Shown here: piece after piece, positions 10,982-41,903 of the stretch
Position numbering within the stretch: position 1 is the first letter of the stretch
Layout of the letters: each line of letters begins with the position of its first letter
Assembly: GCA_022647765.1 (NCBI GenBank)
Contig: JALCLH010000011.1
Span: 62,001 to 126,000 of the forward strand
Direction of reading: 5' to 3'
DNA from: Acidipropionibacterium sp.
GTDB taxonomy: Bacteria > Actinomycetota > Actinomycetes > Propionibacteriales > Propionibacteriaceae
Length of the DNA stretch: 64,000 bases
Translations under genes and position numbers: made by a program
Notes under the pieces: generated by a model
Told to the model about the DNA's origin: nothing
Database searches by the model: none
The model's input: only the letters and a program-made list of their open reading frames with translations

Positions 10982-11061
10982 GGTGAACATTTCACTCGCG
11001 TAAGGGCCGACTCAGCGATTCCAGTGCGAGACCGGCGGCTTAGGCGAGTGAAATGTTCACC
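10982..11061. repeat. Palindromic repeat family A, copy 1 (uninterrupted IS110 target)
   Basis: GGTGAACATTTCACTCGCGTAAGG...CTTAGGCGAGTGAAATGTTCACC. Confidence 0.9.
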
Positions 11062-20875: not shown

Positions 20876-20991
20876 GTGTGGGGGTGAGCGGGTGGGGAGC
20901 GCGAGGGATCGGTGAACATTTCACTCGCCCAAGGGGGGTCCGGAGCGATCTGGATCGCGTTCCGGGGCCTTACGCGATGCTTCTATGTTTG

Positions 20992-22092
20992 TCAAGCCGC
21001 TGCCACCACCCGTGCCGGCTCATCAGCGCAGACCGGGTGCGCACGATTCAACAACCTCCAGATACTGCGGGCCACGTACCGCTTCAAGCACCTCCAGATC
21101 TCGGTGCGAGTCCGACCCTGCCTGGTCCGCCGCTCCACATACTCCCGGGTCGCCTGATCCCCCCTGGCCCGAGTCATCACGATCCGGTACAACGCCGCAT
21201 TCAACCGCCGATCCCCACCCCGGTTCAACCGATACCGCACCGTCTTACCCGACGACGCCGCCACCGGAGACACCCCGGACAACGCGGCGAACCCCGCCTC
21301 ACTGCGGATCCGTCCCGGACGCGACCACGCCGAGATGATCACCGCGGCACTGACCGGGCCCACCCCGAACAGGCCCAACAGTTCGGGGGCCACCGCACCC
21401 ACCAGGTCCTCGATGGCGGCCAGGTTGGTCTGCAACTGCGCGTCGAGGTCGGTGACCCGCCTGGCCAGGCGCACGGCCTCGGCGCGCGCGGTCGCCTCCC
21501 CGATCCGGTCACCGGCACGCTCGCGCCACCGGGCCACCCCCGCGATCTGGGCGCGGGTCAACGTGTGGCGGGCATCGGCGCCCAGGTCGAAGCGGCGCAG
21601 CAGGCCGGTCAGGGTGCAGATCGCGGCACTGCGCTCGTGGTTCATCTGCTCGCGCGCGCAGGTGAGGACCTCCAGGCCCTGGCCGGTCTGGCCCGAGCGC
21701 CAGTCCCGCAACCGGGACATCCGGGTGGCCGCGGCACTGGCTGGCCGCCGCGACCGCGTCGATCGGGTCGGTCTTGGGGCCCCCGGCCCGACGCGGGGTG
21801 GGGGCCTCGGCGACCCGGTAGCCGGCCTCGGTGAGCCGGTCGGCGACGGTGGCCCCGTAGGAGCCGGTGCACTCGGCCGAGATCAGGACCTGGTCTGGTC
21901 CTGGGCGCTGGTGCGCCGCCCGATCCAGTCGAGGGCCCGGGCCAGTCCGGCCGGGTGTGTGGGCAAGGTCTGCTGGTCGGTGATGCGGCCGGTGGTGGTG
22001 TCCAGGATCGCGTAGGAGTGGGTGGCGGCGTGGGTGTCGATGCCCACGATCCACCGGTAGCGGTCTGCGGTGATGGGTTGCATACTGGGCAT
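20992..22092 (-). pseudogene. IS110-family transposase with two indels (about 21740 and about 21895)
   Basis: ORFs 21883..22092 (N-term) and 20992..21720 (C-term) match the intact copy at 40482..41579; indels +2 and +1, net +3. Confidence 0.85.
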
Positions 22093-22152
22093 TGGCGATG
22101 CTCCTCGACGTGTTGGGAACGGTGTCGCTGTCGGCGCCGGCTCGTACGGTGT

Positions 22153-22375
22153 GATCGCGGGGCAACTCTGTCATCGGTCACGCTCCCACCGGGTGTGGGG
22201 GTGGACGGGCTTCTATCAGGTCACCGCGGTCGGGCGGGCCGGTGCCGTCATCGGGGGCCTGGATGGACACATCGCGTAATGGGCACCCCATTGTTGTGTG
22301 GGGGCCGGAGTGATATGGGGTCACGTCCAGGCATCCGGTGACAACACCCAGCCTGCCAGTCGGTCCCAGACCGAC
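22153..22375 (-). ncRNA. Putative IS110 bridge RNA, copy 1
   Basis: Same guide segments as copy 2: TCGCGTAA at 22272-22279 and GAGTGATATG at 22308-22317 (+ strand). Confidence 0.75.
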
Positions 22376-22461
22376 CACCACCAGACTTACAGAGTGAAAT
22401 GTGCACCTGTGGTGGTCGTCGAGATTCCCAGACCGCGGAGAACCGGGTGGGGTGGCGCGAT

Positions 22462-24425: not shown

Positions 24426-24504
24426 GGTGAACATTTCACTCGCATAAGGGGGCTGATCCGCGCTTCGCTGCGCTCCGCGTCTCCTTAGGCGAGTGAAATG
24501 TTCA
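24426..24504. repeat. Palindromic repeat family A, copy 3 (uninterrupted)
   Basis: GGTGAACATTTCACTCGCATAAGG...CCTTAGGCGAGTGAAATGTTCA. Confidence 0.9.
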
Positions 24505-24584
24505 GGTCACCTGCGGATCGCGCCCCTGGGACAGCCGGAGTGGGGCGTACCAGGGGCGCGGAATGCGTTTTCCGACGGCTCAGC

Positions 24585-25854
24585 TCACTCGGGGAGGCCG
24601 TAGGGCAGCTCGGGATGCTCGGCGGAGATCTCCATCAGCCGGTTGTACTTGGCCACCCGCTCGCCGCGCGCCGGGGCGCCGGTCTTGATGTGGCCGCAGC
24701 CAGTCGCCACCGCCAGATCGGCGATGAAGGTGTCCGGGGTCTCGCCGGAGCGGTGGGACATGAACTGCCGGTAGCCCGCGGCCGCGCAGGTGCGCTGGGC
24801 GTCCAGGGTCTCCGAGACGCTGCCGATCTGATTGAGTTTGATGAGCGAGGCATTCGCCACGCCCTTCTCGATGCCCCGGGAGATGATCGCCGGGTTGGTG
24901 CAGAAGATGTCGTCGCCGACCAGCTCGACCTTTCCGCCCAGCCTCTCGGTGAGGCGCTGCCAGCCCTCCCAGTCGTTCTCGGCCAGGCCGTCCTCCAGCA
25001 GCCACACTGGGAACTCGTCGATGATCTTCTCGTAGCGCTCGATCATCTGGTCGGAGCTGAAGCGCTCCCCGGCCACGACATAGGAGCCGTCGTCGGCCCG
25101 GAACTCCGAGGATGCCGGATCCATCGCGATGGCGACGCCTTCGCGTCCGGGTGTGTAGTCGGCCGCCTCGATGGCCGAGACGATGGTGGCCAGCACCTCC
25201 TCCGGCTGGGCGATGTCGGGGGCGAAGCCGCCCTCGTCGCCCAGACCGACCGGATGACCGGCCGCCGCCAGCTTCTTCTTCAGCGCCGCATAGATCTCCG
25301 AGCCGGCGCGCACCGCCTCGGCGATGGTCGGCAGCCCCAGCGGGCAGATCATGAACTCCTGGAAGTCCAGCGGGTTGGCGGCATGGACGCCGCCGTTGAG
25401 GACGTTGAAACACGGCACCGGCAGCCGCGGGGTCTGGGACCCGATCGGCCGGCAGGAACTCGAAGAGCTCCTTGCCCTGGGAGGCGGCGACCGCCCGGGT
25501 GAAGGCCATCGAGACGCCGAGGATCGCATTGGCGCCCAGCGTCGCCTTGTTCGGGGTGCCGTCCAGGTCGATGAGGGTGCGGTCGAGCTCCTCGACGGTC
25601 TCGAAGGGCTTGCCGACGACGGCTTTCGCGATCGGGCCGGTGACATTGCCGACCGCCTTGAGCACCCCCATGCCGGAGTAGCGTGCCGGATCGCCGTCTC
25701 GCAGTTCGACGGCCTCGCGAGCGCCGGTGGAGGCGCCGGAGGGGACCTGGGCCTCGGCACGGGTTCCGTCGTCCAGGGTGAGCTTGACCTTGACGGTCGG
25801 GCGGCTGCGCGAATCGAGAATCTCGAGGGCGCTGAGTGTGGTGATGGTGGGCAT
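24585..25854 (-). CDS. eno: Enolase, frameshifted near 25440
   Basis: MPTITTLSALEILDSRSRPTVKVKLTLDDG...; GLGDEGGFAPDIA; IKLNQIGSVSETLDA; FMSHRSGETPDTFIADLAVATG. Confidence 0.92.
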
Positions 25855-25904
25855 TGCTACTCCTCAACCGAATGTGCACGCGGTTCCTACACGTGCAACG
25901 ACGT

Positions 25905-25963
25905 GCAGGGACCATCAGCCATCTGGCGGTTCGGGAGAGCTCCCGGGCGGGTTCCATCGCCCC
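25905..25963 (-). promoter_or_regulatory. Fluoride riboswitch (crcB motif) upstream of eno
   Basis: Minus strand GGGGCGATGGAACCCGCCCGGGAGCTCTCCCGAACCGCCAGATGGCTGATGGTCCCTGC matches fluoride aptamer layout (GGCGATGG..CCCGCC..AACCGCC..GGCTGATGG). Confidence 0.9.
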
Positions 25964-26151
25964 ACTTGACAGTAGCAGGGGGACTACCCCCTTGCATCCC
26001 CCGAGCGGTACGAGCCTGCGTGAATCTTGGGGTTCGCCGATGGCTGGGTCTGGTGGTCGTGTCGGTGGGAAGGCGCCGTGCGCCAGGGGAGTACCCGTCG
26101 CGACCTCCTGCGGGGACTTTTGCGGGTGGAGGGGTCCGCCGCGCCGTCAAT

Positions 26152-26482: not shown

Positions 26483-27030
26483 ATGGCTGATGTACCCCAG
26501 CCGGGGCTCGACAGATTGGTCGATTTCAGATCGGGGCCGGTACTGGCCGCCAGTCGTTCCCGGTCAGAATCCACTCATCGCGGTGACGGCGGCGCGACTG
26601 TCCGAAGGCGCTCGGGCACCCCTTCCTCCACCTCGCCTTCGTCGACACCACCCGCTACACGGTCGAGGAGTTCCCCGACGGCGCGGTGCGCCACGCGGCC
26701 ATCGATCCCGACGCCGACGCCGGGGACTGGCGACCGGTGCTCTCCGGCCTGGAGAATCAGGCCGCCAAGGCCCTTGAGGGAACCGGCGTCGACTGGAAGG
26801 TCTGGTATCTGGCCGGTCGGCCGGACCGGGCCCTGACCCACCTGGCGCGCGCCGTCGACGCCTCGGTGATCGTCGTCGGACCGCGTCCCCACAAGGGCGG
26901 ACGCCGGTTGCGCGAGCTCGCTGAGGGGTCTGTCGCAAACCATCTGGCACACCATCAGCACCGCCCGGTGCTCACCGTGCCGGTCGAGGTCGTCGACTGG
27001 AAGGACGAACGCGCACCGTGGAGACCGTGA
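26483..27030 (+). CDS. Universal stress protein (UspA-like), frameshifted in the first ~50 codons
   Basis: MADVPQPGLDRLVDF then HLAFVDTTRYTVEEF and ORF 26686..27030 ending LTHLARAVDASVIVVGPRPHKGGRRLRELAEGSVANHLAHHQHRPVLTVPVEV. Confidence 0.7.
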
Positions 27031-27536
27031 CTACTGAGGACGCCGCCGACCGCAAGCCCGGCAGACCCGCGCCGATGTGGGCCCTGGCGCTGCTGGTGGC
27101 GGCCGGCGGCTGCATCGGGACCCTGGCGCGGGCGCTGCTGGAGAGCACCTTCGCGACGCCGCACGGCCACCTCCCGGTGACCACGCTGCTGATCAACCTG
27201 GTCGGGTCGCTGATCCTGGGCATGCTGCTCGAGGGCCTGGCGCGCACCGGGGACGACGTCGGCGTCCGCAAGGCGGTCCGGCTCGGCGTGGGCACCGGAG
27301 TGATGGGCGGATTCACCACCTACTCGACCTTCATGGTGGAGATCGACCGGCTGATCGGCGGCGGGTCGGCCGCCCTCGGACTGATCTACGCCGTCGGCTC
27401 GGTGGTGGCCGGCGTGCTGTGCGCGGTCGCCGGGATCACGGTGGCCCGCCGGGCGGTCTCGCGGCTCGAACGGCGTCCCGAATCCTCCGGATCTGCCGGA
27501 TCTGCCGGATCCAAGGGTCAGGGGGCCCGCCGATGA
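27018..27536 (+). CDS. crcB: Fluoride channel CrcB/Fluc subunit 1
   Basis: AAGGCIGTLARALLESTF..TLLINLVGSLILGMLLEGL..GVMGGFTTYSTFMVE; downstream of fluoride riboswitch. Confidence 0.92.
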   Translation: METVTTEDAADRKPGRPAPMWALALLVAAGGCIGTLARALLESTFATPHGHLPVTTLLINLVGSLILGMLLEGLARTGDDVGVRKAVRLGVGTGVMGGFTTYSTFMVEIDRLIGGGSAALGLIYAVGSVVAGVLCAVAGITVARRAVSRLERRPESSGSAGSAGSKGQGARR

Positions 27537-27892
27537 TCTGGCTGTTCGTCTCGCTGGTCGGCGGACTCGGCTCGGCGACCCGATTCGTGGTCGATTCGTG
27601 GATCGCCCGGCACAATCGCCTCAACACCCCGATGGGGACCATCGTCATCAATGTGACGGCCAGTTTCGTGCTCGGCCTGGCCACCGGGATGGGGATCGAC
27701 CACACCATGACCAAGGCCTGGACATCGGTGATCGGCACCGGGTTCTGCGGCGGCTACTCGACTTTCAGCACGGCTTCGGTGGAGGGCGCCCGGCTCTTCC
27801 TGTCCGGGCGGACCCGGGCGGGCCTGCTGCACGGCGGCGGGATGCTGCTGCTCAGCACCCTCGCCGCCGGGCTGGGAATGGTCATCGGCTGA
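27533..27892 (+). CDS. crcB: Fluoride channel CrcB/Fluc subunit 2
   Basis: MIWLFVSLVGGLGSATRFVVDSWI..GTIVINVTASFVLGLATG..GTGFCGGYSTFSTASVE. Confidence 0.92.
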   Translation: MIWLFVSLVGGLGSATRFVVDSWIARHNRLNTPMGTIVINVTASFVLGLATGMGIDHTMTKAWTSVIGTGFCGGYSTFSTASVEGARLFLSGRTRAGLLHGGGMLLLSTLAAGLGMVIG

Positions 27893-28985: not shown

Positions 28986-29016
28986 TCCCTGCTGTGCGCG
29001 AGAGAGGAGTTGAACC
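28986..29016. repeat. att direct repeat distal to tRNA (31 bp, identical to 38222-38252)
   Basis: TCCCTGCTGTGCGCGAGAGAGGAGTTGAACC. Confidence 0.95.
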
Positions 29017-38221: not shown

Positions 38222-38252
38222 TCCCTGCTGTGCGCGAGAGAGGAGTTGAACC
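38222..38252. repeat. att direct repeat overlapping tRNA-Leu 3' end
   Basis: TCCCTGCTGTGCGCGAGAGAGGAGTTGAACC. Confidence 0.95.
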
Positions 38253-40366: not shown

Positions 40367-40481
40367 CCAGCCAGACCCAGGGCTGCTCTCAGCACGGGGA
40401 AGGTGAACATTTCACTCGCATAAGGAAGCCGATCACAGGACGCAGCAGCGATCCGGTCCTTACGCGATGCTTCTATGTCTG

Positions 40482-41579
40482 TCAAGCCGCTGCCACCACC
40501 TGTGCCGGCTCATCAGCGCAGACCGGGTGTGCACGGTTCAACAACCTCCAGATACTGCGGGCCACATACCGCTTCAAGCACCTCCAGATCTCAGTACGAG
40601 TCCGACCCTGCCTGGTGCGCCGCTCCACATACTCCCGGGTCGCCTGATCCCCCCGGGCCCGAGTCATCACGATCCGGTACAACGCCGCATTCAACCGCCG
40701 ATCCCCACCCCGGTTCAACCGGTAGCGCACCGTCTTGCCCGAGGACGCCGCCACCGGAGAGACCCCGGCCAGCGCGGCGAACCCCGCCTCACTGCGGATC
40801 CGTCCCGGACGCGACCACGCCGAGATGATCACCGCGGCACTGACCGGGCCCACCCCGAACAGGTCCAACAGTTCGGGGGCCACCGCACCCACCAGGCCGT
40901 CGATGGCGGCCAGGTTGGTCTTCAACTGCGCGTCAAGGTCGGTGACCCGCCTGGCCAGGCGCACGGCCTCGGCGCGCGCGGTCGCCTCCCCGATCCGGTC
41001 ACCGGCACGCTCGCGCCAGCGGGCCACCTCCGCGATCTGGGTGCCGGTCAACGTGTGGCGGGCATCGGCGCCCAGGTCGAAGCGGCGCAGCAGGCCGGTC
41101 AGGGTGCAGATCGCGGCACTGCGCTCGTGGTTCATCTGCTCGCGGGCGCAGGTGAGGACCTCCAGGCCCTGGCCGGTCTGGCCCGAGCGCCAGTCCCGCA
41201 ACCGGGACATCCGGGTGGCCGCGGCACTGGAGGCTGCGGCGACCGCGTCGATCGGGTCGGTCTTGGGGCCCCCGGCCCGATGCGGGGTGGGGGCCTCGGT
41301 GACCCGGTAGCCGGCCCCGGTGAGCCGGTCGGCGATGGTGGCCCCGTAGGAGCCGGTGCACTCGGCCGAGATCAGGACCTGGTCTGGTCCGGTGCTGGTG
41401 CGCCGCCCGATCCAGTCGAGGGCCCGGGCCAGTCCGGCCGGGTGTGTGGGGAAGGTCTGCTGGTCGGTGATGCGGCCGGTGGTGGTGTCCAGGATCGCGT
41501 AGGAGTGGGTGGCGGCGTGGGTGTCGATGCCCACGATCCACCGGTAGCGGTCTGCGGTGAGGGGTTGCATACTGGGCAT
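40482..41579 (-). CDS. IS110-family (DEDD / Transposase_20) recombinase
   Basis: RYRWIVGIDTHAATHSYAILD; LISAECTGSYGATIADRL; DLFGVGPVSAAVIISAWSRPGRIRSEAGFAALAGVSPVAASSGKTVRYRLNRGGDRRLNAALYRIVMTRAR. Confidence 0.95.
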   Translation of the reverse strand: MPSMQPLTADRYRWIVGIDTHAATHSYAILDTTTGRITDQQTFPTHPAGLARALDWIGRRTSTGPDQVLISAECTGSYGATIADRLTGAGYRVTEAPTPHRAGGPKTDPIDAVAAASSAAATRMSRLRDWRSGQTGQGLEVLTCAREQMNHERSAAICTLTGLLRRFDLGADARHTLTGTQIAEVARWRERAGDRIGEATARAEAVRLARRVTDLDAQLKTNLAAIDGLVGAVAPELLDLFGVGPVSAAVIISAWSRPGRIRSEAGFAALAGVSPVAASSGKTVRYRLNRGGDRRLNAALYRIVMTRARGDQATREYVERRTRQGRTRTEIWRCLKRYVARSIWRLLNRAHPVCADEPAQVVAAA

Positions 41580-41639
41580 TGGCGATGCTCCTCGACGTGT
41601 TGGGAACGGTGTCGCTGTCGGCGCCGGCTCGTACGGTGT

Positions 41640-41862
41640 GATCGCGGGGCAACTCTGTCATCGGTCACGCTCCCACCGGGTGTGGGGGTGGACGGGCTTC
41701 TATCAGGTCACCGCGGTCGGGCGGGCCGGTGCCGTCATCGGGGGCCTGGATGGACACATCGCGTAATGGGCACCCCATTGTTGTGTGGGGGCCGGAGTGA
41801 TATGGGGTCACGTCCAGGCATCCGGTGACGACACCCAGCCTGCCAGTCGGTCCCAGACCGAC
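41640..41862 (-). ncRNA. Putative IS110 bridge RNA: 5' stem-loop, target-binding loop, donor-binding loop
   Basis: 5' hairpin GTCGGTC/GACCGAC (41846-41862); target loop closed by GCCTGGA/TCCAGGC (41744-41750/41813-41819) with guides at 41795-41804 and 41759-41766; donor loop closed by 41640-41647/41711-41718 with guides at 41696-41703 and 41654-41658. Confidence 0.85.
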
Positions 41863-41903
41863 CACCACCAGACTTACAGAGTGAAATGTTCACTCGCCAC
41901 CGA

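What the first reader, a model, noticed from the sequence alone, without database searches (positions are those of the whole stretch)
41640..41880. Bridge RNA readable in an IS110-family element, with guide loops matching both target and donor
Seen directly: the ~300-nt region upstream of the IS110 transposase (minus strand, 41880 to 41580) folds into a 5' stem-loop (41862-41846), then a hairpin with a large internal loop (stems GCCUGGA/UCCAGGC and GGC-CCCC-A/U-GGGG-u-GCC), then a second such hairpin. In the first loop the 5' strand carries CAUAUCACUC, matching 9/10 of the target top strand CATTTCACTC. The 3' strand carries UUACGCGA, the exact complement of target TCGCGTAA. In the second loop the 5' strand carries AUAGAAGC, an 8/8 match to the right end of the element. 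The 3' strand carries ACAGA, the complement of left end TCTGT. Core dinucleotide TC is shared by both junctions. Established knowledge: IS110/IS621 recombinases use bridge RNAs of this architecture, with left guides equal to the top strand and right guides complementary to it. Inference: this element is an unannotated bridge-RNA recombinase whose specificity can be read from the sequence.
Basis: partly seen in the sequence, partly recalled or inferred. Interest (0 to 1): 0.92.

Follow-up and report, generated by a model that had tools for sequence, protein, structure and literature searches.

The report
RNA-guided jumping gene hitting genome repeats
This is a real bridge-RNA-guided IS110 insertion element whose RNA loops spell out both its own ends and the repeated palindromic DNA it jumps into; it is a new member of a class described in 2024, with hints that its branch uses a slightly different pairing rule at the crossover point.

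Summary
An IS110-group element (window 41878-40466, minus strand) carries a roughly 230-nt bridge RNA upstream of a DEDD/Ser recombinase. Across 52 aligned relatives the predicted fold (5' stem-loop plus two hairpins with internal loops) is strongly supported: 36 of 49 pairs show compensatory change. In 54 elements with many different targets, the left target guide matches the element's own left flank at 8.0 of 9 bases (4.8 for other elements' flanks, z=21). The right guide matches the right flank at 4.7 of 6 (3.2, z=13). Donor guides follow the element's ends in 49/49 (left guide) and 54/57 (right guide). Five copies in the host genome include two right-guide alleles, each beside the matching target allele. 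The target is a REP-like inverted repeat with about 130 half-sites. Beyond the finding, related elements combine a fixed donor core TC with a variable target core NC, and their first core base and the base before it pair with incoming rather than resident DNA, resembling IS621's "handshake" pairing shifted by one position. The element is a new member of a known kind. No RNA or recombination was tested.

The parts
40466..41878 (-). IS110-group insertion element, 1413 bp from left-end TGTAAG to right-end ATC; target-derived core TC at 41880-41879, right core TC at 40467-40466
   Evidence: Boundaries from five copies in the same genome at different sites and from about 130 uninterrupted target half-sites
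41879..41888 (-). left target flank CATTTCACTC including core TC
40458..40467 (-). core TC plus right target flank TCGCGTAAGG
41643..41878 (-). predicted bridge RNA region (5' stem-loop, target-binding loop, donor-binding loop)
   Evidence: RNAalifold consensus and compensatory changes on 52 sequences
41846..41862 (-). 5' stem-loop GTCGGTCTGGGACCGAC
   Evidence: 99.8% of cells paired in helix 1, 3 pairs with changes on both sides
41744..41819 (-). target-binding hairpin with internal loop
41795..41803 (-). left target guide AUAUCACUC, 8/9 match to the left target
41759..41766 (-). right target guide UUACGCGA, exact complement of core plus right target; the allele in L003/L004 is UUAGGCGA beside TCGCCTAA
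41757..41758 (-). handshake-like dinucleotide UG 3' of the right target guide, complementary to donor CA next to the right-end core
   Evidence: clade covariation 43/47 at the adjacent position
41643..41715 (-). donor-binding hairpin with internal loop
   Evidence: helices 7 and 8: 16 of 19 pairs with changes on both sides
41696..41703 (-). left donor guide AUAGAAGC, identical to the right end
   Evidence: donor end and guide agree in 49/49 elements
41654..41662 (-). right donor guide GAUGACAGA; pairs TCTGT, mismatches the next base of its own left end
   Evidence: copies L003/L004 carry UUACAGA
40482..41579 (-). IS110 recombinase, 365 aa (D19, E73, D108, D111, S280)
   Evidence: PF01548 3e-14 and PF02371 1e-17; profile match to IS621 and ISCro4 in the PDB
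40480..40485 (-). TTGACA in the right end, a candidate -35 box for a promoter made at the circle junction
   Evidence: within 14 nt upstream of the right-end motif in 46 of 50 relatives
20976..22391 (-). second copy of the same element in the window, transposase gene broken (frameshift and TGA), bridge RNA intact with identical guides
40407..40424 (+). partner half-site of the REP-like repeat interrupted by the element
24431..24501 (.). uninterrupted REP-like target repeat (two inverted half-sites)
10987..11056 (.). uninterrupted REP-like target repeat (two inverted half-sites)
20916..20933 (+). partner half-site of the repeat interrupted by the second copy

Best explanation
The region upstream of the transposase gene encodes a bridge RNA. 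[quoted passage not shown] only a conserved TTGACA was seen). The recombinase binds the RNA. The first loop pairs with both strands of a target half-site in a REP-like repeat (CATTTCAC-TC-GCG/CTAA), and the second loop pairs with the joined ends (ATAGAAGCA-TC-TGTAAG). Top strands are cut just 3' of the core and exchanged, so the element inserts without a target duplication. Shown here: protein family, element ends, conserved RNA fold, guide-target and guide-donor covariation, and target repeats. Inferred from IS621: transcription, RNA binding, cleavage chemistry and the circular intermediate.
For: Both IS110 Pfam domains and a profile match to IS621 and ISCro4 structures with DEDD and Ser aligned. 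Five copies at different sites with the same ends. A consensus fold of 49 pairs, 36 with compensatory change, 94% of cells paired against 82% in shuffles and 37-45% when slid. Own-flank match 8.0/9 for the left guide (other flanks 4.8, z=20.8) and 4.7/6 for the right (3.2, z=13.1); 20 clearly different targets still give z=13.3. Donor guides match the ends in 49/49 (left) and 54/57 (right). Within this genome UUACGCGA sits beside TCGCGTAA three times and UUAGGCGA beside TCGCCTAA twice. The target motif occurs 130 times within 2 mismatches and never in the reversed control. Eleven held-out elements give 7.7/9 and 4.9/6.
Against: No transcript, binding or recombination data. The fold of this one sequence is not more stable than shuffles. 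One left target guide base mismatches all exact targets in the genome. The right donor guide of this copy mismatches its own left end at one position. Within-genome concordance of five copies alone is weak: about 0.03 by chance, given 23 G-type and 15 C-type sites among the exact matches.
Confidence: 0.94

Rival explanations
1. The structured leader is a cis-acting control element of transposase translation or transcription, and the matches to flanks and ends come from shared ancestry or capture of flanking DNA.
For: The leader lies directly upstream of the transposase gene and is highly structured.
Against: Guides match flanks only in the internal loops, in opposite polarity on the two sides, and change with the target across dozens of unrelated sites. 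A leader control element would not track the insertion site.
Confidence: 0.03
2. The RNA is a genuine bridge RNA, but this copy is no longer autonomous because its right donor guide mismatches its left end; it moves, if at all, using RNA from copies such as L003 or L004.
For: The right donor guide predicts TGTCA while the left end is TGTAA in L001, L002 and L005; L003 and L004 match.
Against: Three copies at different sites share this guide, two of them with identical proteins, and one mismatch may be tolerated.
Confidence: 0.2
3. The matches are chance similarities in a GC-rich leader.
For: Guides are short and the single-sequence fold is unremarkable.
Against: Permutation tests exclude it (z=20.8 and 13.1), as do the donor-guide tables.
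Confidence: 0.01
4. It belongs to the IS1111/seekRNA group rather than the IS110 group.
For: Same DEDD transposase superfamily; both use guide RNAs (PMC11187229).
Against: The long non-coding region is upstream of the gene (299 nt) with only a 16-nt right end, as described for the IS110 type and opposite to IS1111.
Confidence: 0.02

Closest known systems
IS621 (IS110 family, Escherichia coli), Durrant et al. 2024 and Hiraizumi et al. 2024
   Same: Bridge RNA with 5' stem-loop and two internal loops; left guides equal the top strand, right guides complement it; core included in the guides; insertion in REP elements; upstream non-coding end; DEDD plus Ser recombinase
   Different: Core is TC here instead of CT, and target cores in the clade are NC while the donor stays TC. 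Right target guide is about 8 nt instead of 4. Handshake-like covariation sits at position 7 and seemingly 8 rather than 6-7. Host is an actinobacterium and the REP-like repeat has a different sequence
ISCro4 recombinase (PDB 9T56)
   Same: Protein family by profile match
   Different: No guide comparison made here
IS1111 and IS110 seekRNAs (ISEc11, ISXne4, ISEc21), Siddiquee et al. 2024
   Same: Natural retargeting by changes in the guide segments of related elements
   Different: IS1111 RNAs lie downstream of the gene; here the RNA lies upstream and has the two-loop bridge layout
ISAar29, an IS110 element with a bridge RNA drawn in Durrant et al. 2024
   Same: Named there among IS110 elements with predicted target and donor guides
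   Different: Its sequence was not compared here; the relation is unknown

Membership tests
IS110 family, IS110 group | DEDD RuvC-like domain plus Transposase_20 domain with catalytic serine | tested here: met
   PF01548 and PF02371 above cut-off; D19, E73, D108, D111, S280 invariant in the alignment and aligned with IS621
IS110 family, IS110 group | Long non-coding region upstream of the gene | tested here: met
   299 nt upstream, 16 nt downstream
IS110 family, IS110 group | Site-specific insertion at a short core without longer target duplication | tested here: met
   Five junction pairs against uninterrupted repeats; Micropruina copies against 78 uninterrupted sites
Bridge RNA | 5' stem-loop then two hairpins with internal loops | tested here: met
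Bridge RNA | First loop guides pair with both strands of the target | tested here: met
Bridge RNA | Second loop guides pair with both strands of the RE-LE junction | tested here: met
   the window copy itself has one mismatch in the right donor guide
Bridge RNA | Expressed from a promoter formed at the RE-LE junction | tested here: inconclusive
   TTGACA conserved in the right end (46/50); no clear -10 box identified in the left end by eye
Bridge RNA | RNA bound by the recombinase and required for recombination | not testable with these tools
   Needs biochemistry
IS1111/seekRNA group | Non-coding region downstream of the gene | tested here: not met
   16 nt downstream only
IS1111/seekRNA group | Subterminal inverted repeats | not tested
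   Not searched for separately

The most novel reading that the evidence does not exclude
In this actinobacterial IS110 branch the target core and donor core need not match. Target core is NC and donor core is fixed TC. At the first core base the left guides read resident DNA, while the right target guide reads the incoming donor base and the right donor guide tends to read the incoming target base. Handshake pairing would thus cover positions 7-8 instead of 6-7, leaving only one shared C as obligatory homology and freeing target choice from the donor core.
Probability: 0.45. Interest if true: 0.58.

Novelty: new member of a known kind. Interest (0 to 1): 0.42.

Why it matters
It gives a well-bounded bridge-RNA element with its real genomic targets, several natural guide alleles and a set of about 65 relatives with readable guides. 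That makes targeting rules testable from nature alone. If cores need not match in this branch, it bears on how freely bridge recombinases can be aimed.

Tried and rejected
Single-sequence folding gave no significant signal. Rfam has no matching family, even at E up to 1. A scan of viral contigs found no relative. A RAYT (Y1) transposase that might explain the REP-like repeat was sought and not found in this 87% complete genome. A covariance model was not built: at about 260 positions calibration would probably exceed the limit, and the covariation tests were already decisive. The handshake idea came from the discovery set, so I tested it on 11 held-out elements. There the right target guide read donor T in 9/9 (target base T in only 2/9), position 7 agreed in 9/9 (expected 7.2, so little power), the donor-loop position 7 was modest (7/11, p=0.05), and the donor-loop position 8 was not confirmed (7/11 paired, expected 6.5). 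An alternative Micropruina target with core TC was looked for and is absent (0 sites, against 78 with GC).

Full report
WHAT IS THERE. The minus strand from 41878 to 40466 is a 1413-bp insertion element. Its gene (41579-40482, 365 aa) has both IS110-family domains, DEDD_Tnp_IS110 at 3e-14 and Transposase_20 at 1e-17. Its profile matches the solved IS621 and ISCro4 recombinases, with the catalytic D, E, D, D and S aligned to IS621. The non-coding region is upstream (299 nt) and the right end is 16 nt, the layout of the IS110 group (layout described in PMC11187229).

ENDS AND TARGET. The host genome holds five copies at different sites; one of them is a second copy inside this window (22391-20976) with a broken gene. 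All begin TGTAAGTCTGG and end ATAGAAGCATC. The left flank is CATTTCACTC (one copy differs further out), and the right flank continues the same repeat. The uninterrupted repeat ACATTTCACTCGCNTAAG occurs 130 times within two mismatches and never in the reversed control. It comes as inverted half-sites about 52 bp apart around a variable spacer, and its core TTTCACTCGCNTAAG is absent at zero mismatches from four congeners. The element therefore sits in a REP-like repeat, as IS621 does in E. coli, though the sequence is different. Joining the two flanks of the window copy gives a normal repeat unit, so insertion added only the element.

THE RNA FOLD. One sequence alone folds no better than shuffles (z -0.96), so the claim had to be tested comparatively. 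A scan of species genomes returned 80 relatives at about 45-59% protein identity, nearly all actinobacterial by record title. An alignment of 52 upstream regions gives, without being told, a 5' stem-loop, a stem, a hairpin with an internal loop, and a second hairpin with an internal loop. Of 49 pairs, 36 show changes on both sides that keep the pair; 94% of cells are paired, against 82% in shuffles and 37-45% when the partner strand is slid. Rfam 15 has no family that matches.

GUIDES READ TARGETS. Guides and flanks were extracted for 54-57 distinct elements. The left guide matches the last nine bases of the element's own left flank at 8.0/9 on average, against 4.8 for flanks of other elements (z=20.8). 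The right guide matches the six bases beyond the core at 4.7/6 against 3.2 (z=13.1). Keeping only 20 elements whose targets differ at four or more of nine bases still gives z=13.3 for the left guide. Eleven further elements found later give 7.7/9 and 4.9/6. Within the host genome the right-guide allele UUACGCGA lies beside TCGCGTAA in three copies, and UUAGGCGA beside TCGCCTAA in two. With 23 G-type and 15 C-type exact sites in the genome that concordance alone has a chance probability of about 0.03, so it illustrates rather than proves.

GUIDES READ DONOR ENDS. The right-end motif AGAAGC, AGAAGA, AGAAGG or AGGAGA is repeated identically in the left donor guide in 49 of 49 readable elements. 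The left end TGTA, TGTG or TGTC is matched by the right donor guide in 54 of 57. The window copy is one of the exceptions: its right donor guide predicts TGTCA while its left end is TGTAA. Copies L003 and L004 match. The left target guide also has one mismatch (AUAU against ATTT) to every exact target site in the genome.

CORE AND HANDSHAKE. In the relatives the right junction ends in TC in nearly every element where the right end was found, but the left junction has NC with N = G, T, C or A (16, 12, 12, 6). The Micropruina glycogenica element shows that the target itself carries that base: its uninterrupted target CTCGACAAGCTCGACCA occurs 78 times, and a TC version never. So target core GC meets donor core TC; the left junction keeps GC and the right junction keeps TC. 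The left target guide follows the target base. The right target guide reads T, the donor base, in 47 of 48 and in 9 of 9 held-out elements. The next base of the target loop equals the donor's position 7 in 43/47 (19.7 expected) and avoids its own target's position 7 (3/47, 11.6 expected). The donor loop's position 7 equals the target's in 40/54 (16.6 expected) and avoids its own donor (4/47, 12.1 expected); its position 8 pairs with the target core base in 45/54 (25.0 expected). Among 20 distinct-target representatives these hold at p=0.00005 (target loop, position 7), 0.0009 (donor loop, position 7) and 0.004 (donor loop, position 8). In the held-out set the donor-loop position 8 is not confirmed (7/11 against 6.5). 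Handshake guides are known for IS621 at positions 6-7, with covariation at position 7 seen across hundreds of orthologues (PMC11208158). That paper also says the first core base is the less conserved one. The new element here is the apparent inclusion of the first core base in the handshake. These tests treat related elements as independent, apart from the representative sets, so significance is somewhat overstated.

PROMOTER. TTGACA lies just upstream of the right-end motif in 46 of 50 elements, overlapping the stop codon here (40485-40480). It could be the -35 box of a junction promoter, as for IS621; no convincing -10 box was recognised, so this stays an inference.

MECHANISM AND STATUS. 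The best-supported account is a bridge-RNA-guided recombinase that inserts its circle into REP-like repeats. Shown: family, ends, fold, guide-target and guide-donor linkage, target repeats. Inferred from IS621: transcription, RNA binding, top-strand cleavage 3' of the core, strand exchange and circle formation. The kind is known (Durrant et al. 2024, PMC11208160; Hiraizumi et al. 2024, PMC11208158). This element is a new member whose nearest relatives found here, outside its own genome, share under 60% of protein residues; ISfinder could not be searched. The core-handshake pattern of its branch is the part a specialist might not expect.

Noticed in passing
window 10987-11056, 24431-24501, 40407-40424; about 130 half-sites in G000: A REP-like repeat family: conserved inverted ends (GTGAACATTTCACTCGCnTAAG) around a spacer that varies in sequence but is often self-complementary. 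Absent from four congeners at zero mismatches; no Y1/RAYT transposase found in the genome. Its origin is unexplained.
   Followed up: partly
window 28994-29015 and 38230-38251: The 22-nt 3' end of tRNA-Leu(CAG) is repeated exactly about 9.2 kb away, and a phage-type integrase gene lies next to the tRNA: the likely att borders of a small integrated element.
   Followed up: partly
window 25899-25970 and 24580-25854: A fluoride riboswitch (39 bits) sits directly upstream of an enolase-like reading frame that appears frameshifted; two CrcB-like frames follow at about 27018-27892. Domains were not searched; read from the translations.
   Followed up: no
L039, L040, L049, L067, L089 and similar loci: Many relatives share the target TGAA(T/C)CGCC|CCGGGTTTGATG, which looks like the end of another insertion sequence, so this subgroup may specialise in inserting at IS ends. 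Not tested.
   Followed up: no
L023, L178, L195, L196: Elements from separate loci share a target like CGAGCGGGTA...C|CTTTTCCCGG, suggesting a conserved site. Its identity was not determined.
   Followed up: no
L006 (G000:C14 end): A contig ends inside the left end of the element, so the genome probably has more copies than the five counted.
   Followed up: no
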